Below are positions 40,607 to 60,958 of a stretch of 64,000 nt of DNA, one piece after another. The notes under the pieces are model-generated. The model saw nothing but the letters and a program-made list of their open reading frames with translations. It made no database searches and was not told the DNA's origin. Every line of letters begins with the position of its first letter. The stretch's first letter is position 1. Source of the stretch: a virus; IMG/VR virus record IMGVR_UViG_3300025030_001854, positions 1 through 64,000 of that record. One strand, written 5' to 3'. The translations under genes were made by a program, and so were the position numbers.

Positions 40607-40691
40607 CGGCTGTTGAAGGGATTGCACCCTCGCGCCCAAAGGGACGGCTTCAGTTTTCGAGACTGACCTATTACTACTCTAGCAAACAGCC
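40607..40691 (-). tRNA. tRNA-Ser(CGA)
   Basis: 85 nt. Acceptor GGCTGTT/AACAGCC, D stem CTA/TAG, anticodon loop CTCGAAA, long serine-type variable arm. T loop TGCAATC (G55). D loop GAGTAGTAA lacks GG. Discriminator G, no encoded CCA. Confidence 0.9.
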
Positions 40692-40838
40692 CTAACTGCT
40701 TTTCTTGGATTCGTGACAAGAACAGTCGCAACTCTTCTTAGAACACCAATTAAATTTCTTTTTTAGCCAAACTAAAAGTCCAGCACAAAAAATTGGAATT
40801 CCTATACAAAAAATTCCACCATCAATACAAGATATCAT
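40692..40838 (-). CDS. small membrane protein with Cys-rich tail, 48 aa
   Basis: Starts MISCIDGGIF: one membrane helix, then WCSKKSCDCSCHES. Its stop abuts the tRNA-Ser 5' end and its ATG overlaps the upstream stop (TAATG). Confidence 0.6.
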   Translation of the reverse strand: MISCIDGGIFCIGIPIFCAGLLVWLKKKFNWCSKKSCDCSCHESKKSS

Positions 40839-40978
40839 TATTTTTCCCCTTTAGAACATTTACCACATAAAAATTGTGAGCCATTCCACCATAATAACAA
40901 CAAAGGATAAATATCGTGACAACATTCGCATTCTTGCAAAAGGTCATAATTCCCTATATTGTCGTATCCATCCCACAT
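40838..40978 (-). CDS. zinc-finger-like small protein, 46 aa
   Basis: CECCHDIY and CGKCSKG make a four-Cys zinc site in 46 residues. TAATG coupling to the next gene. Confidence 0.6.
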   Translation of the reverse strand: MWDGYDNIGNYDLLQECECCHDIYPLLLLWWNGSQFLCGKCSKGEK

Positions 40979-40989
40979 ATTATAGTTTA

Positions 40990-41154
40990 TTAAATTAATT
41001 CCCTAAGATAACGTTTAATTTCAATACGAGCGGGTTTATTAGCTTTGGCATATTGCTTTTTAGAAGCTCTAATAGCAGTATGAAGCTTGTCTTCTGGAAG
41101 TTCTGAAGATTCTCGTAATGCTTTTCTAATGAGTTTTGCTGTTTTTGCGTTCAT
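40990..41154 (-). CDS. small basic helical protein, 54 aa
   Basis: Starts MNAKTAKLIRKALRESSEL; strongly basic and helical, so nucleic-acid binding is possible. 6 bp from the upstream gene. Confidence 0.6.
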   Translation of the reverse strand: MNAKTAKLIRKALRESSELPEDKLHTAIRASKKQYAKANKPARIEIKRYLRELI

Positions 41155-41160
41155 AAAAGT

Positions 41161-41415
41161 TTAACTATTTTTTATATATTTTTCTAATTCTTTATCGGGT
41201 AAATTTTTTCTCATTTCGACACATTGAGGATTTGAAGAAGAACATCTACCGCCAAATTTTAAGCATTCATAAAAATAAGAGCCTTTTAAATTCATTAATT
41301 CTTGTCTAGTAGATTTTGGGGCCAATTCTGGATATTTTTTAAACGATACAAATTTACCAAGCTCTAAATTTCCAACTTTTTTACATTCTACAAATTGAAT
41401 ACTATAACGTCTCAT
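41161..41415 (-). CDS. hypothetical protein, 84 aa
   Basis: Four Cys (YECLKFGGRCSSSNPQCVEM) in the C-terminal half suggest a zinc or disulfide site; Lys-rich. One base after the 37-residue gene. Confidence 0.6.
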   Translation of the reverse strand: MRRYSIQFVECKKVGNLELGKFVSFKKYPELAPKSTRQELMNLKGSYFYECLKFGGRCSSSNPQCVEMRKNLPDKELEKYIKNS

Positions 41416-41416
41416 A

Positions 41417-41530
41417 TTAAATTCCAGTAAAAGTGTCTTTTTTCTTTTTTTTAAACCACTCTTCTACTTCTAACCACAAAGCCACTACAATTAGTAGAAC
41501 TAATATAAAAAAATCTTTTATGGTTCTCAT
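41417..41530 (-). CDS. small membrane peptide, 37 aa
   Basis: Starts MRTIKDFFILVLLIVVALWL with a basic tail. The start is placed immediately after tRNA-Thr(GGT), because longer readings run through two tRNA genes. Confidence 0.5.
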   Translation of the reverse strand: MRTIKDFFILVLLIVVALWLEVEEWFKKKKKDTFTGI

Positions 41531-41604
41531 TGGAGCCCTAAGATGGTATCGCGCCATCGTCTCTTGAATACCAATCAAGAATAATGCTTTTATACTATTA
41601 GGGC
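41531..41604 (-). tRNA. tRNA-Thr(GGT)
   Basis: 74 nt with encoded CCA. Acceptor GCCCTAA/TTAGGGC, anticodon arm CTTGA-TTGGTAT-TCAAG. T loop CGCGATA (C54, G55). The D arm is weak (ATA/TAT). Confidence 0.85.
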
Positions 41605-41620
41605 ATAAACAAAATATTTG

Positions 41621-41692
41621 AGCCCCGTCCCAGAATTGCACTGAGATTTCTTCCTTACGAGGGAAGCACATCTCTATTTATGTTTACGGGGC
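41621..41692 (-). tRNA. tRNA-Thr(CGT)
   Basis: 72 nt, no encoded CCA. Acceptor GCCCCGT/ACGGGGC, D stem CAT/ATG, anticodon arm CTTCC-CTCGTAA-GGAAG. T loop TGCAATT (G55). D loop AAATAGAG lacks GG. Confidence 0.9.
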
Positions 41693-41729
41693 TTAGACCC
41701 ATTATAAAATGGGCGGGTTCTGGCCAAAT

Positions 41730-41948
41730 TTAAGCGGTTACTAATTGAGAATTCTTATATTCTTCTCCGCACTTATCACAAACAACAACTGGTTGAAATC
41801 CAATTTCTTCTCGGCCCGTGCCACTCAATAGGGCCGAAACCTTACGAATTGTCAATACTTGTTTAAAGTATCCATGTCCACACTTACACATAACTTGTGT
41901 CGTTTGAGACATAGGAATACTGCGAGGACTTAGGTCTGATGCGTTCAT
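41730..41948 (-). CDS. zinc-binding hypothetical protein, 72 aa
   Basis: CKCGHGYF and CDKCGEEY form a zinc ribbon. 4 bp after the 59-residue membrane gene. No family is recognised. Confidence 0.65.
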   Translation of the reverse strand: MNASDLSPRSIPMSQTTQVMCKCGHGYFKQVLTIRKVSALLSGTGREEIGFQPVVVCDKCGEEYKNSQLVTA

Positions 41949-41952
41949 ATTT

Positions 41953-42132
41953 TTAATTTAAAAAGAAAATTCCGACTAAACAAAATAAAACACCAATACC
42001 TAAATAAGCAAATAGCTTACATAGCATTTTAAAGTTTTTGGCATTTGCTTGTTCTTCAACGTATAAATTATCCCAAGAGGTTTCTTCCTGTTTAAGGACA
42101 GGAGATTTAAGGTCAATTTCTTGATTTTCCAT
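41953..42132 (-). CDS. small membrane protein, 59 aa
   Basis: Starts MENQEIDLKS; acidic N-terminal half and a C-terminal membrane helix (FAYLGIGVLFCLVGIFF). Promoter 7 bp upstream. Confidence 0.65.
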   Translation of the reverse strand: MENQEIDLKSPVLKQEETSWDNLYVEEQANAKNFKMLCKLFAYLGIGVLFCLVGIFFLN

Positions 42133-42139
42133 ATAGGTT

Positions 42140-42168
42140 ATATTAAATTAGAGTTGCTGGTTTGTCAA
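42140..42168 (-). promoter_or_regulatory. early promoter
   Basis: TTGACA (42163-42168), 17 bp, TAATAT (42140-42145); ATG after 7 bp. Confidence 0.75.
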
Positions 42169-42176
42169 ACAAAAAT

Positions 42177-42253
42177 TGGTGTTCGCGGTTGGATTTGCAC
42201 CAACCTAATCTATCTACGATTACTTTTTTAGGAAAAAAGGTCGATACGCGAAC
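42177..42253 (-). tRNA. tRNA-Arg(CCT), no D arm
   Basis: 77 nt with CCA. Acceptor GTTCGCG/CGCGAAC. Only TATCGAC lies between acceptor and anticodon arm CTTTT-TTCCTAA-AAAAG, so the D arm is missing. An extra hairpin TAATC-GTAGATA-GATTA follows, then T loop TGCAAAT. Reading the second hairpin as anticodon arm (AGA) is the less likely alternative. Confidence 0.7.
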
Positions 42254-42266
42254 AAAAAATTATAAA

Positions 42267-42581
42267 TTAACATCCATAATTGCTATCTTCTGGAGGAATA
42301 ATTAATGGTTCCAGTTTAAGGGTTTTCTTAAGAAGGTTCTTCTTAATAAGGACGCTTAAAGCTTTTGCTCTTAGATTAAATTCTCTTTGAGATTCTTTTC
42401 TTTTCTGACCTGCAAATTTTTTTGTTTTTCTTTCTTTTTTATTAAATTGACCTTGATGACCAATTCTCCATTTATCTCCAAGAGATTCTAATGGTTCACG
42501 ACAAATAGGACATAACCCATAACCCTTACGGCTATATTTATGCTTTTCGCAAACGTAATTTAAGTTTCTATTTCCAAACAT
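42267..42581 (-). CDS. zinc-finger-like conserved phage protein, 104 aa
   Basis: NYVCEKHKYSRKGYGLCPICREPL is a Cys/His zinc site seen in many T4-like phage small proteins; the remainder is very basic. It may bind nucleic acid. Function unknown. Confidence 0.7.
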   Translation of the reverse strand: MFGNRNLNYVCEKHKYSRKGYGLCPICREPLESLGDKWRIGHQGQFNKKERKTKKFAGQKRKESQREFNLRAKALSVLIKKNLLKKTLKLEPLIIPPEDSNYGC

Positions 42582-42587
42582 ACAATT

Positions 42588-42854
42588 TCATTTAATTAAT
42601 TTATATTTACTCTTAAGAAAATCAATACGAGTGGAATATTTAGAACTCTCAATAATTGGATTTCCTTCTATCTTCAGAAAGATATAACGGACTTCTGTTC
42701 TATCTTTATTTATAGCAACAATTTTAATGAAGGTATCTCCCCAATCTTTGTCTACTAATTCGTCACCAACAGAAATATTGGGACAACAGGATTTAGAAAT
42801 AATACTCTTTCCGTTAACAACAAAATTCCAAAATCTAGTAAAAATATTATTCAT
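42588..42854 (-). CDS. hypothetical protein, 88 aa
   Basis: Central part ISVGDELVDKDWGDTFIKIVAI reads as a small SH3-like barrel. No family is recognised. It starts 11 bp after the tRNA-Arg(TCT) 3' end. Confidence 0.6.
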   Translation of the reverse strand: MNNIFTRFWNFVVNGKSIISKSCCPNISVGDELVDKDWGDTFIKIVAINKDRTEVRYIFLKIEGNPIIESSKYSTRIDFLKSKYKLIK

Positions 42855-42865
42855 AATATATAAAT

Positions 42866-42943
42866 TGGTAGGATAGGAGGGATTCGAACCCTCATTAGTC
42901 CATTATGCACACATTGTTTAGAAGACAAGGCCATTACTATCCC
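42866..42943 (-). tRNA. tRNA-Arg(TCT), no D arm
   Basis: 78 nt with CCA. Acceptor GGGATAG/CTATCCT. TAATGGC replaces the D arm. Anticodon loop CTTCTAA, then a 19-nt variable region. T loop TTCGAAT is canonical, which is rare in this array. Confidence 0.75.
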
Positions 42944-42970
42944 ATTAAATTATTTAATTACTTTAAACTT

Positions 42971-43168: not shown

Positions 43169-43169
43169 A

Positions 43170-43361: not shown

Positions 43362-43371
43362 TTTAAATAAT

Positions 43372-43543: not shown

Positions 43544-43619
43544 TGGAGTCCGCTATAGGAATCGCACCTATCAACCCTCGTTTTGCAGACGCGGTGTTTC
43601 ACTAGCCACACCAGCGGAC
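43544..43619 (-). tRNA. tRNA-Cys(GCA)
   Basis: 76 nt with CCA. Acceptor GTCCGCT/AGCGGAC, D stem GTGT/ACAC, anticodon loop CTGCAAA. T loop TGCGATT (G55). Confidence 0.9.
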
Positions 43620-43623
43620 ATTT

Positions 43624-44374: not shown

Positions 44375-44391
44375 ATATATTTGCAAACGGG

Positions 44392-44464
44392 GAGATTTGC
44401 ACTCCCACGCTTTTTAAAGCCTAAGATTCTCGGTCTTAGATGTCTGCTCTTTCATCACGTTTGC
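44392..44464 (-). tRNA. tRNA-Leu(GAG)
   Basis: 73 nt, no CCA. Acceptor GCAAACG/CGTTTGC, D stem ATG/CAT, anticodon loop CCGAGAA (C33 rather than U33), variable arm GCTTT/AAGC. T loop TGCAAAT. D loop AAAGAGCAGA lacks GG. Confidence 0.8.
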
Positions 44465-44923
44465 TCTATTTCTTACTCCATAATTAGAGGTTTGAGCATG
44501 ACAATTACAGCATAAAAGTTGAATATTGAATAATCTATTATCCTTATTATCTCCATTGATATGATGTAATTCCAAAGGAATATATAATGTATTCCATTTA
44601 ACCCGACCACATTTTTCGCATTGATGTTTTTTTAAACCCTCTTGAATCAATCTTTTTTTTAAACAATGACTACTAATTTTTATGCAATCTTTTACAAGAA
44701 AATATTCAATGGGTTTTCTGGTTGGAGCCCTTTTACCTCTCCAGATAGCTTGACCCAAAAAATGAGGTGCTTTTATTAAAAACTCTTCGGCCCTTTCTTT
44801 TATTCTTAAATAATTATGACTGTCTGGATACAATCCCAATTTAATACATACACTTCTCCAAGATTCTGAATTTTGAATCACAATATTTAATGTTTGAAAA
44901 TCAATTTGTTTTATCTTACCCAT
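44414..44923 (-). CDS. HNH homing endonuclease overlapping tRNA-Leu
   Basis: A 169-residue HNH protein. HQCEKCGRVKWNTLYIPLELHHINGDNKDNRLFNIQLLCCNCHAQT is the zinc-stabilised HNH core (two Cys pairs, His-His, Asn, His). N-terminal helices probably recognise DNA. The last 17 codons lie inside the tRNA-Leu gene (51 bp overlap), suggesting the enzyme homes to tRNA genes. Confidence 0.9.
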   Translation of the reverse strand: MGKIKQIDFQTLNIVIQNSESWRSVCIKLGLYPDSHNYLRIKERAEEFLIKAPHFLGQAIWRGKRAPTRKPIEYFLVKDCIKISSHCLKKRLIQEGLKKHQCEKCGRVKWNTLYIPLELHHINGDNKDNRLFNIQLLCCNCHAQTSNYGVRNRANVMKEQTSKTENLRL

Positions 44924-44941: not shown

Positions 44942-44980
44942 GAAACAGTATGAATTGGGAATTTTCCCTATCTAAAAATT

Positions 44981-45071
44981 TGCGGGGTCTGAGATTTGAA
45001 CCTCAGTCCAGAGTGACAAGCTCTCTTGTATACCCTACTCGCCTTTCGGTTCTTCAGGGCCGCTCCCCCGC
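44981..45071 (-). tRNA. tRNA-like RNA, anticodon unclear
   Basis: About 90 nt. GCGGGG/CCCCGC acceptor and a T arm with canonical TTCAAAT. The D-like stem CGG/CCG can be drawn. The middle forms CCCT/AGGG and ACAAG/CTTGT hairpins instead of a normal anticodon arm. Possibly degenerate or a structured RNA of another kind. Confidence 0.45.
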
Positions 45072-45072
45072 G

Positions 45073-45474
45073 TCAGTAACCTCGGTAACAAACCGTTAAG
45101 TGTAACGGCCATTTTAAATCAGGTTTTAATCCTAATTCAGTTCTTATATGTTGAATAAAAGGACATTCCACTAATAACCAAAAATACTCTCCTAAAAAGA
45201 AATATTCATGGTCAGTCTTAATATCAGAGAAATATTTAAATTCAATTACTTTTCCTTCATATTTACCCCATAAAGGATGTTGATTAATTCCCCTTTCGTG
45301 TTTTCCAGGAAGAATCGTAACGTGGCTTCCGTGGTAAGAGGTAGAAGTTTTCTTGCCGATAAATCTTTCTACCCAAAATCTATAGTAATTAGCAATAGAA
45401 TGAGGACATTCTAAAATTATCCAATCATTCTTATATCTAATAACGCCTTTGGCGAAATAAAATTTTTCTTTCAT
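45073..45474 (-). CDS. 2H phosphoesterase-like protein, 133 aa
   Basis: Two His-x-Thr-x motifs, GSHVTILPG at about residue 50 and LHLTVCYRG at the C-terminus, are the signature of 2H phosphoesterases (LigT/CPDase). They open 2',3'-cyclic phosphates or cleave 2'-5' bonds. In this genome it pairs logically with the RNA ligase and macro domain in RNA-end healing. An anti-defence cleavage of 2'-5' or cyclic oligonucleotides is an alternative. The sequence outside the motifs is unusual (Trp/Tyr-rich). Confidence 0.7.
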   Translation of the reverse strand: MKEKFYFAKGVIRYKNDWIILECPHSIANYYRFWVERFIGKKTSTSYHGSHVTILPGKHERGINQHPLWGKYEGKVIEFKYFSDIKTDHEYFFLGEYFWLLVECPFIQHIRTELGLKPDLKWPLHLTVCYRGY

Positions 45475-45723: not shown

Positions 45724-45798
45724 TGGTAGTCCCGAACGGTCTTGCGCCGATACTTGCGAATTTTTGAAATTCGTGCCTCTGCTTTGGGCTACGGGACC
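45724..45798 (-). tRNA. tRNA-Leu(CAA), short variable loop
   Basis: 75 nt with CCA. Acceptor GGTCCCG/CGGGACT, D stem GCC/GGC, anticodon arm CGAAT-TTCAAAA-ATTCG. T loop CGCAAGA. The 5-nt variable loop is odd for leucine, which is class II in bacteria. Confidence 0.85.
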
Positions 45799-46451: not shown

Positions 46452-46528
46452 TGGTGAGATTAGAGGGCATTGCACCCTCGTTTACTGCTTGAGAAACAGT
46501 AGTCCTATTCTTCTTAGACGATAATCTC
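46452..46528 (-). tRNA. tRNA-Glu(CTC)
   Basis: 77 nt with CCA. Acceptor GAGATTA/TAATCTC, D stem GTC/GAC, anticodon arm ACTGT-TTCTCAA-GCAGT. T loop TGCAATG. D loop lacks GG. Confidence 0.9.
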
Positions 46529-46909: not shown

Positions 46910-46980
46910 GGTGGCAGGCTGGGGATTCGCACCCCACCGAATTCCTTATGAGAGAACTCTGGCCGCTAGACCGCTTGCCA
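46910..46980 (-). tRNA. tRNA-Met(CAT)
   Basis: 71 nt with CCA. Acceptor GGCAAGC/GCCTGCC with one mismatch, anticodon loop CTCATAA, T loop TGCGAAT (G55). D loop AGCGGCC. It could be elongator Met or, if modified, Ile reading AUA. Confidence 0.85.
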
Positions 46981-50163: not shown

Positions 50164-50238
50164 TGGTGGGTTGACGGGGAATCGCACCCCGTTCCGAGAC
50201 TTTAAGAGAGTCCGCTTCACTATCAAAGTTTTCAACCC
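50164..50238 (-). tRNA. tRNA-Lys(CTT)
   Basis: 75 nt with CCA. Acceptor GGGTTGA/TCAACCC, D stem CTT/AAG, anticodon loop CTCTTAA, T loop TGCGATT. D loop TGATAGTG lacks GG. Confidence 0.9.
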
Positions 50239-50991: not shown

Positions 50992-51065
50992 TGGTGGGAC
51001 TCCACGGTATCTCGCCGTGTTCTCAAGGTTAAAAGCCTTTTGCATCAATTTAATGCTTGAATCCC
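50992..51065 (-). tRNA. tRNA-Lys(TTT), copy 1
   Basis: 74 nt with CCA. Acceptor GGGATTC/GAGTCCC, D stem GCAT/ATGC with loop TAAATTG, anticodon loop CTTTTAA. T loop CGAGATA. Nearly identical to the copy at 51816. Confidence 0.9.
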
Positions 51066-51112: not shown

Positions 51113-51580
51113 ATGAAAGAACAAATTCTTAAACTCAGAGCTGAAGGTAAATCTTACGACCAAATTGTTTCGTTACTTGGATGTTCTTCTGCTACTGTTT
51201 GGTATCATTGTAACCCAACCGCAAAAAAAGAACGAGCCCGCCTCAATAGATTAAAAGATAAACTTTGGCATAAAAAAATTAAAATTATTTTTGGTGGTAA
51301 ATGTCAATCTTGCGGTTATCATCGCTGTCTTTCCGCTTTAGATTTCCATCACTATAATAACGATAAAACATATTCGGTCATGAATATTATTCGTATTTCA
51401 AAAGGTAAAGCAATACAAGAAGCAATGAAATGTATTCTTCTTTGTTCTAATTGTCATCGAGAAGTTCATAATAAAATGTTAGATATTAGTCATTTAGTCC
51501 CAAACATTCCTACTCAAGGACTTGGGAAAAGCGGACGACCATCAAAACTTATAGTAATGGCTAAAACCTTCAACCCATAA
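51113..51580 (+). CDS. HNH homing endonuclease with N-terminal HTH
   Basis: 155 residues. The N-terminus LRAEGKSYDQIVSLLGCSSATVWYH is a helix-turn-helix. The core CQSCGYHRCLSALDFHHYNND...CILLCSNCHREVHN is a zinc-stabilised HNH. Plus strand, lying between two near-identical tRNA-Lys(TTT) genes that may mark its insertion or a duplication event. Confidence 0.88.
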   Translation: MKEQILKLRAEGKSYDQIVSLLGCSSATVWYHCNPTAKKERARLNRLKDKLWHKKIKIIFGGKCQSCGYHRCLSALDFHHYNNDKTYSVMNIIRISKGKAIQEAMKCILLCSNCHREVHNKMLDISHLVPNIPTQGLGKSGRPSKLIVMAKTFNP

Positions 51581-51815: not shown

Positions 51816-51889
51816 TGGTGGGCCTCCACGGTATCTCGCCGTGTTCAATTGGTTAAAAGCCAATTGCATCAATTTAATGCTTGAAGCCC
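51816..51889 (-). tRNA. tRNA-Lys(TTT), copy 2
   Basis: 74 nt with CCA. Acceptor GGGCTTC/GAGGCCC, same D arm (loop TAAATTG) and T loop CGAGATA as copy 1, anticodon arm AATTGG-CTTTTAA-CCAATT. Confidence 0.9.
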
Positions 51890-52155: not shown

Positions 52156-52232
52156 TGGTGCGCCGTGAGAATTCTGCCATCTCGTTATTTTTGCTTGGAA
52201 GGCAAATGCCATAGCTTCTAGGCGAACGACGC
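52156..52232 (-). tRNA. tRNA-Gly(TCC)
   Basis: 77 nt with CCA. Acceptor GCGTCGT/ACGGCGC, D stem GCC/GGC with loop TAGAAGCTAT, anticodon arm TTTGC-CTTCCAA-GCAAA. T arm GAGA/TCTC with an atypical 9-nt loop containing GGCAG. Confidence 0.85.
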
Positions 52233-53198: not shown

Positions 53199-53272
53199 TG
53201 GTAGGCCGTACTTGTTACGCTCAAGTGAAAAAATCTCATCAGGATTCTATTTTACTATTAAATTAACGGCCC
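53199..53272 (-). tRNA. tRNA-Ile(GAT)
   Basis: 74 nt with CCA. Acceptor GGGCCGT/ACGGCCT, D stem ATTT/AAAT, anticodon loop CTGATGA, T loop AGCGTAA. Confidence 0.88.
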
Positions 53273-53331: not shown

Positions 53332-53423
53332 TGGTAGCTCCATGCCGAATCTCACGGCCCAGCACCCCAGTCCGGGGATTATATTCGTTATAAGCGAACC
53401 CATGCAATTTACATCTTGGAGCC
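53332..53423 (-). tRNA. tRNA-Ile(TAT)-like, long variable arm
   Basis: 92 nt with CCA. Acceptor GGCTCCA/TGGAGCT, D stem ATG/CAT, anticodon arm GTTCG-CTTATAA-CGAAT, variable hairpin CCCC/GGGG, T loop TGAGATT. A class II isoleucine tRNA is abnormal; its charging identity is uncertain. Confidence 0.75.
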
Positions 53424-53436: not shown

Positions 53437-53512
53437 TGGTCCCATTCCATCGTACTGCCCGATGACTTTCTGTGCTTCAAACAGACGTGCAGACTATCTA
53501 CACCAGAATGGG
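53437..53512 (-). tRNA. tRNA-Phe(GAA)
   Basis: 76 nt with CCA. Acceptor CCCATTC/GAATGGG, D stem GTG/CAC, anticodon arm TCTGT-TTGAAGC-ACAGA, T loop GGCAGTA. Confidence 0.85.
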
Positions 53513-53514: not shown

Positions 53515-54099
53515 TTAAAAATGTTTTTGACTATGACAATTGGGACACAAATACATTAAATTGTTAATTAAATTATTTTTTTTATTTTCGTCTATGTGAT
53601 GAATTTGTAATTGAATTGGATTATTTTTCCAAGAATCAATACTACATTCAAAACATTTATAAGGAACATTATGAATATTCATATGCTTTTTAAGAGATTT
53701 TCTTGTTAATCTTTCCTGTCTAAGTATTGTTTTTTGATTTGTTAGTTGTGCGGTTTTTAAACCTCCGCGTTTTCTCCCATTATCACGACCAATAGAAACA
53801 TCAACATTTAACTTTAATAATCTTTTTTTATAATGATACCATGCTCCACCACTCATTCCGACGCCTAAATATAATAAAAATTGATTAATTGAATCACTCT
53901 CCCTCCAAACCTCTAACAACTTTTCATCCGAAAATTTAAAACGATTCTTTAAATATATATTTGGTTTCGTTTTTAAATTTAATTTTTTTAACCGATAACG
54001 TATTCCAGTTTCACTTAATCCCACATTGGAACTTAATTCTTTAATTGTTAAACCCTGGTCAATTAAATCTTCCAAAAACTTTCTTTCTAATATTTTCAT
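53515..54099 (-). CDS. HNH homing endonuclease
   Basis: 194 residues. Helix-turn-helix-rich N-terminal half (LTIKELSSNVGLSETGIRYRL). The C-terminal HNH is YKCFECSIDSWKNNPIQLQIHHIDENKKNNLINNLMYLCPNCHSQK, with zinc Cys pairs. It ends 2 bp before tRNA-Phe. Late-type element 7 bp before the ATG. Confidence 0.9.
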   Translation of the reverse strand: MKILERKFLEDLIDQGLTIKELSSNVGLSETGIRYRLKKLNLKTKPNIYLKNRFKFSDEKLLEVWRESDSINQFLLYLGVGMSGGAWYHYKKRLLKLNVDVSIGRDNGRKRGGLKTAQLTNQKTILRQERLTRKSLKKHMNIHNVPYKCFECSIDSWKNNPIQLQIHHIDENKKNNLINNLMYLCPNCHSQKHF

Positions 54100-54166: not shown

Positions 54167-54240
54167 TGGTCGGTCATGTCGTAATCCCAACGACCCCTTA
54201 TGCTCCCAAAGCACATGTGCTTGTTCAACACTTATGACCG
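54167..54240 (-). tRNA. tRNA-Pro(TGG)
   Basis: 74 nt with CCA. Acceptor CGGTCAT/ATGACCG, D stem GTG/CAC, anticodon arm TGTGC-TTTGGGA-GCATA, T loop TGGGATT. Confidence 0.88.
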
Positions 54241-54243: not shown

Positions 54244-54317
54244 TGGTGAGGCGTAACGGTAACTCTCCGCTTTAGCTAGTTTGTAATACTAGTGCATTAA
54301 TTTTATGCTAACACCCC
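54244..54317 (-). tRNA. tRNA-Val(TAC)
   Basis: 74 nt with CCA. Acceptor GGGGTGT/ACGCCTC, D stem GCAT/ATGC, anticodon arm CTAGT-ATTACAA-ACTAG, T loop AGAGTTA. Confidence 0.88.
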
Positions 54318-54449
54318 AATTTTTCAGAGAACAGACAACAACAGCTTTTTTAACGTGCTACTATTACACCAACGACTTTCGTCGCCTTGGATTTGCACCA
54401 AAACCTTTCGTTTGATAGACGATGAAACTGTTATTTACACTACTGAAAA
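54318..54449 (-). ncRNA. tRNA-like element with halves in inverted order
   Basis: A T arm TTTGG-TGCAAAT-CCAAG and 3' acceptor strand GCGACGA are followed, after AAG, by a matching 5' strand TCGTTG and a D-arm-like hairpin GTG-TAATAGTAG-CAC. So the 3' half precedes the 5' half. A related order is seen at 58933. It contains two GTGTAA elements (54363, 54434). A circularly permuted tRNA or a degenerate remnant are both possible. Confidence 0.4.
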
Positions 54450-54523
54450 TGGTGAACGTTGAGAGAATCGCACTCCCGTCTCGGATATGTCGCACCCGCG
54501 CTTTTCTTTTAAACTAAACGTCC
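54450..54523 (-). tRNA. tRNA-Val(GAC), tentative
   Basis: 74 nt with CCA. Acceptor GGACGTT/AACGTTC, anticodon arm CGGGT-GCGACAT-ATCCG (C33), T loop TGCGATT. Anticodon less certain than its neighbours. Confidence 0.7.
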
Positions 54524-55203: not shown

Positions 55204-55278
55204 TGGTGACGGTGACAGGAATTGCACCCGCACTTGTTGGTGTCTAAAACCAATGCCTCTGCGTTGGGCTACACCGCC
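55204..55278 (-). tRNA. tRNA-Leu(TAG), short variable loop
   Basis: 75 nt with CCA. Acceptor GGCGGTG/CACCGTC, D stem GCC/GGC, anticodon arm TTGGT-TTTAGAC-ACCAA, 5-nt variable loop. T loop TGCAATT. Confidence 0.88.
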
Positions 55279-55369: not shown

Positions 55370-55452
55370 TGGTAGCCAAGACGGGACTTGCACCCGTAAA
55401 ATTACGAAATTTTAAGTTTCGTTGCTGTGCTGTTCGCATTAATCACTTGGCC
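55370..55452 (-). tRNA. tRNA-Leu(TAA)
   Basis: 83 nt with CCA. Acceptor GGCCAAG/CTTGGCT, anticodon arm CGAAA-CTTAAAA-TTTCG, short variable region (7 nt), T loop TGCAAGT. The D arm is unusually long and ill-defined. Confidence 0.85.
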
Positions 55453-55933
55453 GTTTTTTATTTTTACTTTTATATGTAGATGTCTGCGCGTGACAATTTG
55501 GACATAAAATTTGTAGATTCTCTAAACGATTATCTGTTTTTATTCCATTAATATGATGCAATTCTAAGGGAATTTTCTGATTTTGCCACTCTCTTATTTG
55601 ACATATTTCACATTCATACTTTTTTAATTTTCTATCAAAAAGTCTATTTTTTAAATTATGAGAGGTTGTTTTAGATGGACAATTATCGGTTAACCAATAT
55701 TCAATTGGTTTCCAATTAGATGTTTGTTTCCCTCTTAATAATTTATTGTAAGACCGACCAACCCAATGAGAAACATCAAAATTATATTTTTGAACAATTT
55801 TAACAATTATTTTAAATTGACTAGAAGATTTCCCTGTCTGACCTAGTGATAACAATACCATTTTTATTGTAATATTATTTTTATCATTTATAGCTTTTAC
55901 AGCTTCTTCGTCAGTAAATTTTCTAGCACTCAT
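55439..55933 (-). CDS. HNH homing endonuclease overlapping tRNA-Leu(TAA)
   Basis: 164 residues from MSARKFTDEE. HNH core YECEICQIREWQNQKIPLELHHINGIKTDNRLENLQILCPNCHAQTS, with zinc Cys pairs; N-terminal HTH-like helices. Closely related to the enzyme at 44414. Its last codons and stop lie in the tRNA acceptor and D region (14 bp overlap). Confidence 0.9.
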   Translation of the reverse strand: MSARKFTDEEAVKAINDKNNITIKMVLLSLGQTGKSSSQFKIIVKIVQKYNFDVSHWVGRSYNKLLRGKQTSNWKPIEYWLTDNCPSKTTSHNLKNRLFDRKLKKYECEICQIREWQNQKIPLELHHINGIKTDNRLENLQILCPNCHAQTSTYKSKNKKRPSD

Positions 55934-56085
55934 ATATGTATAGATATACACACGTCTATGCTTATAGAGAAATATTAATAGAACAAGCAATAAGAACGGC
56001 ACAATGCCAGTTTTCCCAATTACTAATTTGGCGGGAAAATTCGATTATGAGTCGAAGTATTTCTTATTTATCACTAATTAAATCG

Positions 56086-56158
56086 GGCGAACAACGAGGT
56101 TTGCACTCGCATAATCTTGATTCACAATCAAGGACATTAACGTTATGCTATATTCGCC
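56086..56158 (-). tRNA. tRNA-His(GTG)
   Basis: 73 nt, no CCA. Eight-bp acceptor GGCGAATA/TGTTCGCC, giving the G-1:C73 pair diagnostic of tRNA-His. D stem GCAT/ATGT, anticodon arm CTTGA-TTGTGAA-TCAAG. T loop TGCAAAC. Confidence 0.92.
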
Positions 56159-56463: not shown

Positions 56464-56539
56464 TGGCCCTCTATGCGAGACTCGCACTCGCTACATATCT
56501 TAGACAGAGATATATGATAAACTCATTCAACAATAGAGG
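56464..56539 (-). tRNA. tRNA-Asp(GTC)
   Basis: 76 nt with CCA. Acceptor CCTCTAT/ATAGAGG, D stem TGA/TCA, anticodon arm ATATCT-CTGTCTA-AGATAT, T loop TGCGAGT. Discriminator G, usual for Asp. Confidence 0.9.
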
Positions 56540-56615: not shown

Positions 56616-56692
56616 TGGCGAACATAGAGGGACTCGCACCCACAATCTTTGCCTTCGCAGGGCAATGCTTTATCTAATTTAGCTATATGTTC
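56616..56692 (-). tRNA. tRNA-Arg(GCG)
   Basis: 77 nt with CCA. Acceptor GAACATA/TATGTTC, D stem GCT/AGC, anticodon arm TTGCC-CTGCGAA-GGCAA, T loop TGCGAGT. Confidence 0.9.
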
Positions 56693-56887: not shown

Positions 56888-56971
56888 TGGTAGACACGGA
56901 AAGATTTGCACTTTCATTTTCAATTTCTAATTACCATTACTAATTTCGAAGATTAGCTGGATTACGTGTCC
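56888..56971 (-). tRNA. tRNA-Arg(TCG), no D arm
   Basis: 84 nt with CCA. Acceptor GGACACG/CGTGTCT. TAATCCAG replaces the D arm. Anticodon arm CTAAT-CTTCGAA-ATTAG, then a 24-nt variable region. T loop TGCAAAT. Same plan as Arg(CCT) and Arg(TCT). Confidence 0.75.
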
Positions 56972-57696
56972 AATTTCTTTTTTTGTTTATTAACATGGGA
57001 AAATGGAGAAATATTTTTCCAATCTAAATTGTAATATTTGGCCCATTTTCTTATTGTATTGTCGGAACCCACTCCAATTAATTTTTTAATTTGTAAAATA
57101 TTTTTTGTTTTTAAAAGACTCTCCAATTCTTCTTTAGATGGACGGATAAATTTTCTATTACTAATCTTAGGAGAATGTCGCCAATTAGGATTTAATTGAG
57201 ATGGTTTTATTTTATATTTTTTATGTCTCTTTCCAGCAAATGAAGGTGTTTGGCTGTGACAGTTTGGGCAAAGAAAAGCTAAATTTTCCAAACGATTATC
57301 ATTAGATACTCCGTTCTTATGTTCTAATTGAAGACTTAATTTATTTCCTTGCCACTCTCCAAAATTTCCGCATTTTTCACATTTATAATCTAGTAATTGA
57401 AATTTAATAAGATTAGTTTTAATGTGTCGTCTATTTTGTATAGAATTTTCTTCTAATTTCCGTAAAAAATCATCTTTAGTATTTTTTCTTGTCAAGTTAG
57501 AAGAATTTACTCTCGATAAAAAATGTTTTGTATCTAATCCTAAAAATTCAATTCTCTTCCAACAGGTTTGATAATTAGACCCTTTATTTTCCATTCCAAA
57601 AAATCTTAAAACTTGAGACATACTAATGCTATTTTTAATAAGCTCAATAAAAGCATTATCTTCCATTTGCCAAACCACGCTTGTTCTTTTTCTCAT
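56962..57696 (-). CDS. HNH homing endonuclease overlapping tRNA-Arg(TCG)
   Basis: 244 residues from MRKRTSVVW. HNH core YKCEKCGNFGEWQGNKLSLQLEHKNGVSNDNRLENLAFLCPNCHSQT with zinc Cys pairs; a C-terminal HTH-like region follows. Its last four codons are the tRNA-Arg 5' end (10 bp overlap). Late-type element 7 bp before the ATG fixes the start. Confidence 0.9.
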   Translation of the reverse strand: MRKRTSVVWQMEDNAFIELIKNSISMSQVLRFFGMENKGSNYQTCWKRIEFLGLDTKHFLSRVNSSNLTRKNTKDDFLRKLEENSIQNRRHIKTNLIKFQLLDYKCEKCGNFGEWQGNKLSLQLEHKNGVSNDNRLENLAFLCPNCHSQTPSFAGKRHKKYKIKPSQLNPNWRHSPKISNRKFIRPSKEELESLLKTKNILQIKKLIGVGSDNTIRKWAKYYNLDWKNISPFSHVNKQKKKLDT

Positions 57697-57703
57697 ATCA
57701 TAT

Positions 57704-57710
57704 ATTACAC
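57704..57710 (-). promoter_or_regulatory. late-type promoter element
   Basis: GTGTAAT, 7 bp before the HNH ATG. Confidence 0.65.
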
Positions 57711-57747
57711 AAAATAACGTAAGAAGTCTAATAATAGTGCAAAATAC

Positions 57748-57821
57748 TGGCTCCCCTCCCACCACTTGCAGATGGACTTACGCTTTCAAAGAGCGGTTTG
57801 CTACTCTTACAACAGAGGGGA
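57748..57821 (-). tRNA. tRNA-Gln(TTG)
   Basis: 74 nt with CCA. Acceptor TCCCCTC/GAGGGGA, D stem TTG/CAA, anticodon loop CTTTGAA, T loop TGCAAGT. Discriminator G, typical for Gln. Confidence 0.9.
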
Positions 57822-57903: not shown

Positions 57904-57979
57904 TGGTGGACACAGATGGGAATCGCACCCACTAAATCTTCATTGCGAATGAAGTGCATCGCTATTTTGCTTCTGGCCC
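57904..57979 (-). tRNA. tRNA-Ala(CGC)
   Basis: 76 nt with CCA. Acceptor GGGCCAG/CTG-T-GTCC with one bulge; the G3-U70 alanine determinant is present. D stem GCA/TGC, anticodon arm CTTCA-TTCGCAA-TGAAG, T loop TGCGATT. Confidence 0.85.
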
Positions 57980-58314: not shown

Positions 58315-58394
58315 TGGTGGACCACGGCGGTAACACTCCGCTTTTTTTAACTTGCTTGCAAAGCAAGTTCAACATTTTTGTTGCCACGTAGCCC
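58315..58394 (-). tRNA. tRNA-Ala(TGC)
   Basis: 80 nt with CCA. Acceptor GGGCTAC/GTGGTCC with G3-U70; D stem CAAC/GTTG; anticodon arm ACTTGC-TTTGCAA-GCAAGT; T loop AGTGTTA. Confidence 0.88.
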
Positions 58395-58454
58395 AAGGAG
58401 GCGCGTATCGTTAACGCCGACGCCTGATTGAATACAGGAGGTCTTGTGAACCCA

Positions 58455-58544
58455 TGGCGGAAGCAGGGGGAGTCGCACCCACACCGGCTTTCACCGGCTT
58501 AGTTTAGCAAACTAATTCGACAAACTGATATTCGACTTACTTCC
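58455..58544 (-). tRNA. tRNA-Ser(GCT)
   Basis: 90 nt with CCA. Acceptor GGAAGTA/TGCTTCC, D stem TCG/CGA, anticodon arm TTAGT-TTGCTAA-ACTAA, long variable arm CCGG/CCGG, T loop TGCGACT. Discriminator G. Confidence 0.9.
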
Positions 58545-58668: not shown

Positions 58669-58754
58669 TGGCGGAAGCTAAGAGAATCGCACTCATAAGC
58701 CCTTGCGGACCAACAGTTTTCAAGACTGTGCCCTCGTCTATTCGGACAGCTTCC
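58669..58754 (-). tRNA. tRNA-Ser(TGA)
   Basis: 86 nt with CCA. Acceptor GGAAGCT/AGCTTCC, anticodon arm ACAGT-CTTGAAA-ACTGT, long variable arm, T loop TGCGATT. Discriminator G. Confidence 0.9.
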
Positions 58755-58842
58755 AAATCCCGATATTTAGTTTTCGGGCAAACAACATCAACTCTGTCTG
58801 ATGTCTGGCGATATTACATAACGGTAATATTCGTTGTTAACA

Positions 58843-58932
58843 TGGTGGGCGCGGCAGGAATTGCACCTGCGATGTTTACCCGATGGGATGAATTTTACAG
58901 ATTCACGTCTTCGCTACTCAAACCACACGCCC
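58843..58932 (-). tRNA. tRNA-Tyr(GTA)
   Basis: 90 nt with CCA. Acceptor GGGCGTG/CGCGCCC, anticodon arm TGAAT-CTGTAAA-ATTCA, variable arm CCC/GGG as expected for bacterial Tyr, T loop TGCAATT. Confidence 0.92.
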
Positions 58933-59068
58933 AATATTGTGAGAACAAACGAAAAAAGCTTTTTTCTGTGCTACCGCTACACTAAGACGGCATTTTGAGC
59001 CGTCTGCAAGACTTGAACTTGCCCTAGTCTTTACAATAAGATGAAACTCTTTTCTGACGCTACACAAA
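58933..59068 (-). ncRNA. tRNA-like element with halves in inverted order
   Basis: A canonical T arm GCAAG-TTCAAGT-CTTGC and acceptor 3' strand AGACGGC-T are followed, after CAAAA-T, by GCCGTCT, then TA and a canonical D arm GTG-TAGCGGTAG-CAC, then AAAAAAGCTTTTTT. Acceptor strands form a perfect 7-bp stem with a 7-nt loop. The D-arm sequence is among the most canonical in the window. A permuted tRNA gene is possible, but no anticodon stem joins the ends cleanly. Confidence 0.45.
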
Positions 59069-59139
59069 TGGCAAGAAGTGTGAGACTCGCACTCACCAAG
59101 ACAAGTTTTGGAGACTCGTCACCGCCTTGCGGACTTCCT
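59069..59139 (-). tRNA. tRNA-Trp(CCA), triloop D arm
   Basis: 71 nt with CCA. Acceptor AGGAAGT/ACTTCTT, D arm reduced to CCGC-AAG-GCGG, anticodon loop CTCCAAA, T loop TGCGAGT. Discriminator G. Confidence 0.85.
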
Positions 59140-59216
59140 ATTAATTGAGAGAACAAATAATTTCAGCGTTGTTTCATTAGACGTGAAGTAACTGAAATAG
59201 ACACTACTCAAATATT
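59140..59216 (-). other. spacer with acceptor/anticodon-like minihelix
   Basis: ATTTCAG/CTGAAAT (7 bp) encloses a 4-bp hairpin TTCA-CGTCTAA-TGAA without D or T arms. It follows the GTAGTGT spacer block and is followed by GTTCTC. It could be a processing signal or an armless tRNA-like RNA. Confidence 0.35.
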
Positions 59217-59291
59217 TGCGGAAAATCAGGAGTCGAACCTGTTATCTCTAACCTTATGAGGGTTGAATGGTATTCCGTTCCACTCTTCCGC
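59217..59291 (-). tRNA. tRNA-Met(CAT) with canonical elbow
   Basis: 75 nt, no CCA. Acceptor GCGGAAG/TTTCCGC, D stem TGG/CCA with loop AACGGAATA containing GG, anticodon arm CAACC-CTCATAA-GGTTA, T loop TTCGACT. The only tRNA keeping both canonical loops, perhaps the initiator, though it lacks the C1-A72 mismatch and the three G-C anticodon-stem pairs. Confidence 0.9.
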
Positions 59292-59292
59292 A

Positions 59293-59367
59293 TGGCTCTC
59301 GGGGCTTGATTCGCACAAGCATATCGCGCTTTAACAGAACGCTTCACTACTTTTGTGATACCCGAGA
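59293..59367 (-). tRNA. tRNA-Asn(GTT)
   Basis: 75 nt with CCA. Acceptor TCTCGGG/CCCGAGA, D stem TCAC/GTGA, anticodon loop CTGTTAA, T loop TGCGAAT. Discriminator G, typical for Asn. Confidence 0.9.
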
Positions 59368-59774
59368 ATTATAAAACATTTTAATACTAAATACATAAGA
59401 AGTTTTTATGGTCATTTCAACCACTTTGATAGGTAAAACCACCATTCGTTATCTCTGAATTACATAATATAGAGGCAATTCTCAGAATGGCCATACGTTT
59501 AATGGACCGAAAGTTTAAGGTTACCGCCCACATAGTCCTGCTCTGACCGAGAAATGTCAGCTTGATTGGCAAAAGGAAATCCCAAATATGCTTTACACAC
59601 CCAAAATATCCTACACAATGCTTATGTCTTGTAACATGTAACTGCATTAGTATTAAAATTGGCACCTGTCGGGGTCTTTCTCCCCAATCACCACATTGAT
59701 ATCGGCAATAATTAGCACACAATCTCTAATTATCAAAAGTATCGAATATCGTGGCACTTGTGTTCAGGTATAAA
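59368..59774 (-). other. 400-bp gap without a tRNA
   Basis: No cloverleaf is found. A minus-strand frame (59417-59722, 101 codons) is open but its Cys/His/Trp-rich content and codon use differ from real genes here, so it is not called. GGGGAGAAAGACCCC forms a hairpin. It could hold an unknown RNA. Confidence 0.4.
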
Positions 59775-59851
59775 TGGTAGTGGTAGACGGAGTTGCACCG
59801 ACATTTTACTCGCTGAAAACGAGGAGTCCTAGACTATTAGACGATACCACC
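59775..59851 (-). tRNA. tRNA-Glu(TTC)
   Basis: 77 nt with CCA. Acceptor GGTGGTA/TACCACT, D stem GTC/GAC, anticodon arm CTCG-TTTTCAG-CGAG, T loop TGCAACT. Confidence 0.88.
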
Positions 59852-59979
59852 ATAAAATTGAATACTTGTAACAACATGCATTACAAGTATTTAGAAGAAA
59901 TGTTAGACCCTTCTTGGGAAGCCTAACTTAGTGGTAATTCTTCATACCGTTCTATAACTATTGCAATAATTATAGAAAA
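59852..59979 (-). repeat. two inverted repeats downstream of the HNH gene
   Basis: AATACTTGTAA/TTACAAGTATT (11 bp, 9-nt loop, about 59860-59890) and TTCTATAA/TTATAGAA with inner TATTGCAATA (about 59949-59976). Neither has a T tract, so they are not clear terminators. Confidence 0.5.
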
Positions 59980-60462
59980 TTATTTAATAATTGGACTCGT
60001 TTTTATATGTTGTAATAAAGAAAGGATTTGTTCTTTTCTATATCCATTTTTTCCTAAATTAACAAAAATACAAACAAATTCGACATTTCCCTCAACATAT
60101 CCCTTTGAAGAATCTATTCTATCTAGAGAAGCTTTTGCTGGATTATGAGTAGAAAATCTTCCTTTGTCTAAATGCATATTAATACCTAAATATGGGCAAA
60201 TTCCCATTTGAATATCCCAAATAGATTTAAGATAACTTACGGTTAAATTAAAATCTAACTGTTTTAGTTTTGCATTTTTCTTTGCTGTGCTTACATAGAC
60301 TCTAAAAGGAGAAAATTCATCTTCTTCACTTGCCTGACAAGATAAAGAACAAAAAAATCTATCTTTTTTTCTCCCTCTAGAAAGCTGACGAGTATACTCT
60401 CGTTTCTCCTTTTCAAAGGATATTCCACATTTAAAACAAATCAATTGTAATACTTCTCTCAT
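59980..60462 (-). CDS. HNH-type homing endonuclease
   Basis: 160 residues. N-terminal zinc site ICFKCGISF and FFCSLSCQ. The core CPYLGINM...ASLDRIDSSKGYVEGNVEFVCIFVN is the phage HNH/endonuclease-VII-like form also seen at 47111. Lies between tRNA-Ala(GGC) and tRNA-Glu. Late-type element 7 bp before the ATG. Confidence 0.88.
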   Translation of the reverse strand: MREVLQLICFKCGISFEKEKREYTRQLSRGRKKDRFFCSLSCQASEEDEFSPFRVYVSTAKKNAKLKQLDFNLTVSYLKSIWDIQMGICPYLGINMHLDKGRFSTHNPAKASLDRIDSSKGYVEGNVEFVCIFVNLGKNGYRKEQILSLLQHIKTSPIIK

Positions 60463-60469
60463 ATAAGTA

Positions 60470-60476
60470 TTTACAC
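60470..60476 (-). promoter_or_regulatory. late-type promoter element
   Basis: GTGTAAA, 7 bp before the HNH ATG. Confidence 0.65.
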
Positions 60477-60502
60477 TATCCGGTGGAGCTTGAGAAACAA
60501 AA

Positions 60503-60577
60503 TGGTGGAGATAGATGGTTATGCTCCATCTATTAGACTATGCCATAGTCTTGTGATACTGATTTCACCATATCCCC
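60503..60577 (-). tRNA. tRNA-Ala(GGC)
   Basis: 75 nt with CCA. Acceptor GGGGATA/TATCTCC with G3-U70, D stem GTGA/TCAC, anticodon arm AGACT-ATGGCAT-AGTCT, T loop AGCATAA. Confidence 0.9.
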
Positions 60578-60884
60578 AGAAGGGCACTTAACGTCGAATG
60601 AGGAATTCTAGTTAAATGCCACCGACAAAAAAAAGAAAATTAGGAGGGAATATCTTATTACCCCCAAGCACTCTTTCTTTTAGATTATTCGGTCAGATAG
60701 GACCGTCGTCCCAAAATTGCGCTGTTATGGAATATAAAATCGCAACTACATTTAATATTTCGGTTGGCCGACCTAATAAAAAAATTACCTTATCTAAAAG
60801 ATTTCATGGCAGCCCAGCTTCATTTTTCATGAGTCGAGCACGTTACAAGTAACAGTACTTGTTTTTCTGTCACTAATCTTCTTA
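60578..60884. other. 300-bp gap between tRNA-Gly(GCC) and tRNA-Ala(GGC)
   Basis: A plus-strand frame (60616-60852, 78 codons, MPPTKKRKLGG start) is open with plausible codon use but has no late-type element or promoter. The minus strand has no ORF. It may be a gene remnant. Nothing certain. Confidence 0.4.
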
Positions 60885-60958
60885 TGGAGCAGTATGTCGG
60901 TAACGCTCCGACTTGTTTTGATTGGCAATCAAACGCATTACTTTTGTGCTAATACTGC
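60885..60958 (-). tRNA. tRNA-Gly(GCC)
   Basis: 74 nt with CCA. Acceptor GCAGTAT/ATACTGC, D stem GCA/TGC, anticodon arm TTTGA-TTGCCAA-TCAAA, T loop AGCGTTA. First tRNA after the array promoter. Confidence 0.9.

What the first reader, a model, noticed from the sequence alone, without database searches (positions are those of the whole stretch)
40607..60958. Phage tRNA array with U55 replaced by G in almost every T loop
Seen directly: of 40 tRNAs whose T arm can be drawn, only Met(CAT) at 59217 and Arg(TCT) at 42866 keep TTC. All the others have G at position 55 (TGC in 23; also AGC, CGC, CGA, TGG, TGA, AGT, AGA, GGC). D loops mostly lack the G18-G19 that normally pair with U55-C56. Anticodon loops and acceptor stems remain intact (G3-U70 in Ala, G-1:C73 in His), so these are maintained, not decayed. 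Established: U55 (pseudouridine) and G18-G19 form the tRNA elbow seen by RNase P, TruB, EF-Tu and the ribosome; cell-wall tRNA-Gly species of staphylococci also depart there. Inference: the phage tRNAs form a structurally separate set, perhaps hidden from host tRNA nucleases or modification enzymes, or with reduced EF-Tu use.
Basis: partly seen in the sequence, partly recalled or inferred. Interest (0 to 1): 0.93.

Follow-up and report, generated by a model that had tools for sequence, protein, structure and literature searches.

The report
tRNA set with a rewritten elbow
A phage carries a set of 41 tRNA genes, covering all twenty amino acids, in which one of the most conserved contacts holding tRNA in shape (G18 with U55) has been swapped almost everywhere for A18 with G55, and the same kind of tRNA set turns up beside Ro60/RtcB RNA-repair genes in Verrucomicrobia, which hints at spare tRNAs for when normal ones are cut.

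Summary
In detail: 39 of 41 tRNA genes (minus strand, 40374-60958, all 20 amino acids) have G at position 55. D loops do not lack contacts: position 18 is A instead of G, and 19:56 stays a Watson-Crick pair that covaries (AG/GC, AU/GA, AC/GG, AA/GU). Only Met(CAT) and Arg(TCT) are U55, with GG available. Pooled over 836 tRNAs, G55 goes with AG and U55 with GG (Fisher p 6e-114). The elbow is therefore rewritten, not lost. The swap occurs singly in other phages and in cells (SAR11 tRNA-Phe). Whole sets are rarer: this phage and its nearest relative, some other viral contigs, and Verrucomicrobia. In a search of 384 genomes of that class for Ro60/TROVE genes, 11 of 12 clear Ro60 genes lie within about 10 kb of G55 tRNAs, usually with RtcB and an HNH gene; 0 of 9 weak hits and 0 of 8 proteobacterial hits do. 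The phage has Ro60, an RNA ligase, RlaP, the same HNH family and a Y-RNA-like element. Most likely these are reserve tRNAs of an RNA-repair module, independent of Psi55 and Gm18. Structure is strongly supported; function is inferred.

The parts
60888..60958 (-). tRNA-Gly(GCC); 18-19 AG; T loop AGCGTTA
60506..60577 (-). tRNA-Ala(GGC); AG; AGCATAA; G3:U70
59778..59851 (-). tRNA-Glu(TTC); AG; TGCAACT
59296..59367 (-). tRNA-Asn(GTT); AG; TGCGAAT
59218..59290 (-). tRNA-Met(CAT); canonical elbow GG with TTCGACT
59072..59139 (-). tRNA-Trp(CCA); AG; TGCGAGT
58846..58932 (-). tRNA-Tyr(GTA); AG; TGCAATT
58672..58754 (-). tRNA-Ser(TGA); AG; TGCGATT
58458..58544 (-). tRNA-Ser(GCT); AG; TGCGACT
58318..58394 (-). 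tRNA-Ala(TGC); 18-19 AA with 55-56 GU; AGTGTTA
57908..57979 (-). tRNA-Ala(CGC); AG; TGCGATT
57751..57821 (-). tRNA-Gln(TTG); AG; TGCAAGT
56891..56971 (-). tRNA-Arg(TCG), D arm atypical or displaced; TGCAAAT
56619..56692 (-). tRNA-Arg(GCG); AG; TGCGAGT
56467..56539 (-). tRNA-Asp(GTC); AG; TGCGAGT
56086..56157 (-). tRNA-His(GTG); 18-19 read as CG; TGCAAAC; G-1
55373..55452 (-). tRNA-Leu(TAA); TGCAAGT
55207..55278 (-). tRNA-Leu(TAG); 18-19 read as CG; TGCAATT
54453..54523 (-). tRNA-Val(GAC); AG; TGCGATT
54247..54317 (-). tRNA-Val(TAC); AU with 55-56 GA; AGAGTTA
54170..54240 (-). tRNA-Pro(TGG); AC with 55-56 GG; TGGGATT
53440..53512 (-). tRNA-Phe(GAA); AG; GGCAGTA
53335..53423 (-). tRNA-Ile(TAT); AU with 55-56 GA; TGAGATT
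53202..53272 (-). tRNA-Ile(GAT); AG; AGCGTAA
52252..52323 (-). tRNA-Gln(CTG); AG; AGCGTTA
52159..52232 (-). tRNA-Gly(TCC); AG; GGCAGAA
51941..52008 (-). tRNA-Thr(TGT); AG; AGCGTTA
51819..51889 (-). tRNA-Lys(TTT); AU with 55-56 GA; CGAGATA
50995..51065 (-). tRNA-Lys(TTT), second copy; AU with GA; CGAGATA
50167..50238 (-). tRNA-Lys(CTT); AG; TGCGATT
46912..46979 (-). tRNA-Met(CAT); TGCGAAT
46455..46528 (-). tRNA-Glu(CTC); AG; TGCAATG
45727..45798 (-). tRNA-Leu(CAA); AG; CGCAAGA
44382..44464 (-). tRNA-Leu(GAG); AG; TGCAAAT
43547..43619 (-). tRNA-Cys(GCA); AG; TGCGATT
42869..42943 (-). tRNA-Arg(TCT), no normal D arm; TTCGAAT with GG available
42180..42253 (-). tRNA-Arg(CCT), no normal D arm, extra arm between anticodon and T arms; TGCAAAT
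41621..41692 (-). tRNA-Thr(CGT); AG; TGCAATT
41534..41604 (-). tRNA-Thr(GGT); AG; CGCGATA
40607..40691 (-). tRNA-Ser(CGA); AG; TGCAATC
40374..40462 (-). tRNA-Ser(GGA); AG; GGCAGGA (just outside the reported range)
58938..59055 (-). Y-RNA-like element: closing helix, anticodon-like hairpin, T arm (UUC), acceptor helix closed by a loop, D arm (GG); ortholog in relative G001
63536..64000 (-). 3' part of a Ro60/TROVE gene (468 aa; gene continues to 64942 of the record), 2.6 kb upstream of the array
7527..8438 (-). RNA ligase (PF09414, phrog_548)
28645..29394 (-). RlaP RNA-repair nucleotidyltransferase (PF10127)
31325..31948 (-). HNH protein of the family that also sits in the Verrucomicrobial tRNA/Ro60/RtcB loci

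Best explanation
These are functional phage tRNAs whose elbow pair 18:55 has been rewritten from G:Psi to A:G while the 19:56 Watson-Crick pair is kept (shown by covariation). They cannot receive Psi55 or Gm18 (follows from sequence), yet the D-T loop contact is preserved. They belong with a Ro60/RNA-repair module: in Verrucomicrobia equivalent tRNA sets lie next to, and in two loci read closely in the same direction as, Ro60, RlaP, RtcB and HNH genes; the phage holds Ro60, RlaP, an Rnl-type RNA ligase, the same HNH family and a Y-RNA-like element. Inferred function: a near-complete reserve tRNA set that keeps translation going when ordinary tRNAs are cleaved by defence nucleases or RNA damage, with the altered elbow freeing it from elbow-modifying enzymes and possibly from elbow-reading nucleases. 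My confidence: rewritten but intact elbow 0.93; association with the Ro60/RNA-repair module 0.85; reserve-set function 0.45; evasion of an elbow-reading factor as the reason for the swap 0.3.
For: Covariation: U55 with GG in 576 of 606, G55 with AG (no GG) in 188 of 230, Fisher p 6e-114; where D-loop numbering is unambiguous, 55-56/18-19 are UC/GG 162 and GC/AG 68, with rarer GA/AU, GG/AC, UA/GU and UU/GA. Stems kept by paired changes. All 20 amino acids covered. SAR11 tRNA-Phe uses A18:G55 while the order also holds G18:U55 orthologues. Ro60 beside G55 arrays in G000, G001, G018, G019, G028, G029 and in none of 20 mixed or canonical records. Search started from Ro60 in 384 genomes: 11 of 12 clear Ro60 genes have G55 tRNAs within about 10 kb, with RtcB in 8 of 9 of the loci compared, HNH and RlaP.
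Against: No expression, charging or modification data. RlaP also occurs in phages with canonical arrays. Three G55-dominated sets (G016, G017, G027) gave no TROVE match, and 8 proteobacterial TROVE loci have no array. The phage Ro60 gene is 2.6 kb from the array, and its HNH, RlaP and RNA ligase genes are roughly 8 to 32 kb away. No RtcB was found in the held 136.8 kb.
Confidence: 0.5

Rival explanations
1. Modification-independent folding: phage tRNAs are made faster than host enzymes can modify them, so a purine-purine A18:G55 pair that needs no Psi55, m5U54 or Gm18 is selected; nucleases play no part.
For: U54 is also lost in about 38% of G55 tRNAs (54-58 A-U 34, G-G 31, C-A 17 of 230), against about 7% of U55 tRNAs.
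Against: Phages with large canonical arrays exist (LR756501/2, RcXuper, DSS3_MAL1); chromosomal Verrucomicrobial sets have no such time pressure.
Confidence: 0.25
2. Neutral swap: A18:G55 is an isofunctional alternative that drifts in, and arrays dominated by it expanded by duplication and horizontal transfer of the module, with no benefit from the swap itself.
For: Single swaps occur in many phages and in SAR11, candidate-phyla and archaeal genomes.
Against: Near-total adoption across isotypes; isotype-specific loops such as AGCGUUA mirror AUCGUUA of canonical relatives, which suggests many parallel conversions.
Confidence: 0.2
3. The array RNAs are tRNA mimics (decoys or Ro60 ligands) and are not used in translation.
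For: Ro60 neighbours and a Y-RNA-like element with a tRNA-like domain.
Against: Anticodons, CCA ends, Ala G3:U70 and His G-1 are kept, all 20 amino acids are covered, and the Y-RNA-like element keeps the canonical elbow.
Confidence: 0.08
4. The host's own tRNAs all have A18:G55 and the phage merely matches its host.
For: Verrucomicrobial chromosomes carry such sets.
Against: Those genomes have 51-56 tRNA hits in all, many outside the arrays and scoring up to 75 bits as ordinary tRNAs; the single SAR11 genome read has only one A18:G55 tRNA among those parsed.
Confidence: 0.04

Closest known systems
Phage tRNA arrays proposed to counter tRNA-cutting defences (eLife 2023, PMC10264068; Nat Commun 2024, PMC11555353)
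   Same: Phage-encoded tRNA set covering many amino acids; linked in the literature to anticodon-nuclease and retron evasion
   Different: There the escape is by anticodon-loop changes or by supplying specific tRNAs; here the elbow pair 18:55 is rewritten in almost every tRNA
Bacterial Ro60/Rsr - Y RNA - RtcB RNA-repair operon (PMC7790460)
   Same: Ro60, RtcB, a tRNA-like Y RNA; concerned with cleaved tRNAs
   Different: The Verrucomicrobial loci also hold a near-complete tRNA set with A18:G55 elbows; the phage has an Rnl-type ligase instead of RtcB in the held sequence
Jumbo-phage RNA-repair kits (PMC7824862)
   Same: RNA ligase, RlaP, macro domain and, in a small subset, TROVE proteins
   Different: No elbow change is described in the passages read
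tRNA array units of mycobacteria, their phages and plasmids (PMC5966550)
   Same: Dense tRNA arrays on chromosomes and phages with HNH, peptidyl-tRNA hydrolase or RF-1 genes
   Different: A term search of the text found no mention of T-loop, TROVE or RtcB
Canonical tRNA elbow (PMC4810234, PMC7912444)
   Same: Residue 19 pairs with 56; residue 18 intercalates; 54:58 pair
   Different: A18:G55 instead of G18:Psi55; several 54:58 types

Membership tests
tRNA (Rfam RF00005) | Cloverleaf with 7-bp acceptor, D, anticodon and T arms | tested here: met
   12-18 genes reach the gathering score; the rest found by stem search; stems kept by paired changes; three Arg tRNAs lack a normal D arm
tRNA (Rfam RF00005) | G18:U55 and G19:C56 elbow | tested here: not met
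   39 of 41 have G55, mostly with A18; 19:56 kept as a Watson-Crick pair
Phage tRNA arrays | Many tRNA genes clustered in a phage genome | tested here: met
   41 tRNAs in about 20 kb of an IMG/VR virus record with rIIA/rIIB, polymerase and primase genes
Ro60/RtcB RNA-repair operon | Ro60 (TROVE + vWA) gene with RtcB | tested here: inconclusive
   Verrucomicrobial loci: met. Phage: TROVE met, RtcB not found in the held 136.8 kb, Rnl-type ligase present
YrlA-type bacterial Y RNA | tRNA-like domain closed on itself plus Ro60-binding helix | tested here: inconclusive
   Fold and an ortholog in G001 fit, but no Rfam Y-RNA match; Ro60 binding not testable here; YrlA description is from own knowledge
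Staphylococcal cell-wall tRNA-Gly | Elbow-altered tRNA-Gly used by Fem ligases outside translation | not tested
   Here nearly all isotypes are altered, so the analogy is weak (own knowledge)

The most novel reading that the evidence does not exclude
Phages and Verrucomicrobia share a module in which a near-complete second tRNA set with an A18:G55 elbow is held next to Ro60, RlaP and RtcB genes as an orthogonal reserve: tRNAs that tRNA-cutting or elbow-reading factors do not recognise, deployed when normal tRNAs are destroyed, while a Y RNA with the canonical elbow may act as decoy.
Probability: 0.3. Interest if true: 0.93.

Novelty: new variant of a known kind. Interest (0 to 1): 0.8.

Why it matters
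The G18:Psi55 contact is treated as near universal. Hundreds of natural tRNAs with a covarying A18:G55 swap show that the elbow has a second working solution, in whole sets as well as singly. Their place beside Ro60 and RtcB gives a direct, testable link between phage tRNA arrays, RNA repair and the poorly understood Ro60/Y RNA system, and suggests why some genomes keep a second tRNA set.

Tried and rejected
Mis-registered T arms: rejected, 5-bp stems with 7-nt loops and Rfam alignments agree. Decayed pseudo-tRNAs: rejected by paired stem changes. Antiparallel 18:56/19:55 pairing: considered because GC or GU with GC would fit; dropped because A18 with 19:56 Watson-Crick also fits Pro AC/GG and Ala AA/GU. 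Circularly permuted tRNA at 59022: reinterpreted as Y-RNA-like; the look-alike in RcXuper is probably a two-piece tmRNA (own knowledge). Verrucomicrobial arrays as misbinned phage: rejected, arrays lie on contigs of up to 1.5 Mb. RtcB in the phage: none found. Cultured relatives of the array: DNA searches found none with G55; RcXuper and DSS3_MAL1 are canonical. First protein query (rIIA) found no relatives. PADLOC gave only generic HNH hits. Burroughs and Aravind 2016, Chen 2014 and Sim 2020 are not held in the library, so prior notice of tRNA arrays in Ro60 loci could not be excluded.
Full report
What was checked. The window is bases 1-64000 of a 136,838 bp IMG/VR virus record. A stem-based scan together with Rfam gives 41 tRNA genes, all on the minus strand at 40374-60958, covering all 20 amino acids, and none elsewhere in the record. 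Thirty-nine have G at position 55; only Met(CAT) 59218 and Arg(TCT) 42869 have UUC.

The D loop answers the T loop. Reading the D loops against the T loops shows A18G19 opposite G55C56 in most tRNAs, A18U19 opposite G55A56 (Lys twice, Val-UAC, Ile-UAU), A18C19 opposite G55G56 (Pro) and A18A19 opposite G55U56 (Ala-UGC). His and Leu(UAG) read best as C18G19. Met(59218) has G18G19, and the unusual Arg(UCT) has GG available. So 18:55 is switched from G:U to A:G, and 19:56 stays Watson-Crick. In 849 distinct tRNAs from the window, related and unrelated viral contigs, two cultured phages and Verrucomicrobial loci (tRNAs selected by my own pattern scans removed, except in the window), U55 goes with GG in 576 of 606 and G55 with AG but not GG in 188 of 230 (Fisher p 6e-114). 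Restricting to D loops where numbering is unambiguous gives, as 55-56/18-19, UC/GG 162, GC/AG 68, UU/GA 4, UA/GU 3, GA/AU 3, GG/AC 1. For G55 tRNAs with a base other than C at 56, 8 of 10 contain the required A plus complement, against 23-39% expected from other loops; in the U55 class U56 goes with GA in 17 of 17. The scanner is home-made, D-loop numbering is ambiguous in long loops, and related sequences are not independent, so the p-value is nominal; the pattern itself is very strong.

Loop core. The 54:58 pair in G55 tRNAs is U-A 142, A-U 34, G-G 31, C-A 17. LR756502, a megaphage related through ribonucleotide reductase, has AUCGUUA or AUCGUAA loops in Val, Ile and Thr tRNAs where the window has AGCGUUA, AGCGUAA or AGAGUUA, which points to conversion isotype by isotype, not spread from one founder.

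Where else. Of the nearest relatives by ribonucleotide reductase, G001 is G55/A18 throughout (6 tRNAs) and G005's one tRNA (a CTA suppressor) is G55 with AG, but G002's one tRNA is canonical and megaphages LR756501/2 are canonical. Cultured phages RcXuper and DSS3_MAL1, with about 30 tRNAs each, are canonical; a Ser tRNA of viral contig L318 is 76% identical to that of DSS3_MAL1 over 88 bases yet has the swapped elbow. Many viral contigs mix both types. In cells, SAR11 tRNA-Phe(GAA), some candidate-phyla Phe and Thr, Elusimicrobia Thr and archaeal Ala and Thr tRNAs carry A18:G55. In one SAR11 genome 30 of 33 tRNA loci were fetched; of the 19 tRNAs parsed only Phe has the swap, and the order contains both forms of tRNA-Phe. 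A18:G55 is therefore very probably a working elbow.

The Ro60 link. G55-dominated arrays were noticed in three Verrucomicrobial genome bins, two of them beside RlaP and HNH genes and one of these also beside a TROVE (Ro60) gene. The phage itself has a Ro60 gene at 63536-64942 of the record, a PF09414 RNA ligase, RlaP and the same HNH family. Among 29 records searched, TROVE is found in 6 of 9 with G55-dominated sets and in 0 of 20 others (Fisher 1.8e-4, or 5.7e-4 with the two closest phages merged), near a G55 array in each of the six. The stronger test started from Ro60 alone: in 384 genomes of the class of G029, the 12 clear TROVE hits (at least 31 bits) include 11 with G55 tRNAs within about 10 kb. 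In the ten newly fetched loci with such tRNAs the G55 counts are 20 of 20, 16 of 16, 3 of 3, 3 of 3, 24 of 27, 4 of 4, 26 of 27, 19 of 19, 15 of 19 and 5 of 5; the eleventh is G029 itself, through which the class was chosen. One clear hit (G353) has none, and 9 weaker TROVE hits and 8 proteobacterial ones have no G55 array. The arrays lie on contigs of up to 1.5 Mb, so they are chromosomal. Eight of nine of these loci compared encode RtcB (four identified by Pfam, the rest by similarity to them); several encode HNH and RlaP, and in L551 the order tRNAs - Ro60 - RlaP - RtcB - HNH and in L553 tRNAs - Ro60 - RtcB - HNH run in one direction.

Y-RNA-like element. At 59055-58938 (minus) lies a folded element with a closing helix, an anticodon-like hairpin, a T arm (UUCAAGU), an acceptor helix closed by a 7-nt loop, and a D arm (AGCGGUA). 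The relative G001 has an ortholog with paired changes. From own knowledge this resembles YrlA Y RNAs, partners of Ro60, but Rfam does not recognise it. It keeps the canonical UUC/GG elbow, unlike the tRNAs around it.

How it most likely works. Shown: sequence, elbow covariation, maintained stems, all-20 set, genomic association with Ro60 and RNA repair. Following from known enzymes: no U55 means no TruB product, and A18 means no Gm18. Inferred: the set is used in translation as a reserve when normal tRNAs are cut; the elbow swap gives independence from elbow modification or escape from elbow-reading factors. Literature supports parts of this frame: phage tRNAs counter tRNA-cutting defences (PMC10264068, PMC11555353), Ro60/RtcB operons respond to cleaved tRNAs and the YrlA tRNA-like domain has been proposed as a competitive inhibitor of the nuclease (PMC7790460), and jumbo phages carry RNA ligases, RlaP and sometimes TROVE (PMC7824862). 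In the papers searched and read I found no description of an A18:G55 elbow; key papers on RNA-repair systems and Y RNAs were not readable here, so earlier notice of tRNA arrays in these loci cannot be excluded.

Verdict. Observation confirmed, interpretation partly right: the elbow is rewritten rather than lost, and the trait belongs to a wider Ro60-linked tRNA-set module. Function remains to be tested.

Noticed in passing
window 42180-42253, 42869-42943, 56891-56971: Three Arg tRNAs (CCT, TCT, TCG) have only 7-8 nt between acceptor and anticodon stems and a long stretch (an arm in Arg-CCT) between anticodon and T arms, as if the D arm were missing or displaced. Not seen in the Arg tRNAs read in L177.
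   Followed up: partly
window about 54330-54430, minus strand: Possible second Y-RNA-like or permuted tRNA-like element with an acceptor helix closed by GAAA and a UGC T loop with an AG D loop.
   Followed up: partly
window, 10-20 nt upstream of tRNA-Tyr, Val(TAC), Leu(TAG), Trp: Recurring TGTTCTC element before several tRNAs, role unknown.
   Followed up: no
window 44414-44923, 51113-51580, 53515-54099, 55439-56002, 56962-57765, 59980-60462: Several HNH-like (homing-endonuclease-like) reading frames scattered inside the tRNA array, judged from their Cys/His motifs; the 56962 frame ends inside the acceptor stem of tRNA-Arg(TCG).
   Followed up: no
window 20811-21590: Apyc1-like (anti-Pycsar) metallo-beta-lactamase-fold protein (PF23023, 8e-28), a likely anti-defence gene.
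   Followed up: no
SAR11 genomes, e.g. L446: The tRNA-Phe of many Pelagibacteraceae carries A18:G55 while the other tRNAs parsed in the genome examined are canonical.
   Followed up: partly
window about 44975-45080, minus strand: A roughly 105-nt tRNA-like RNA with paired ends and a GTTCAAAT T loop, not classified.
   Followed up: no
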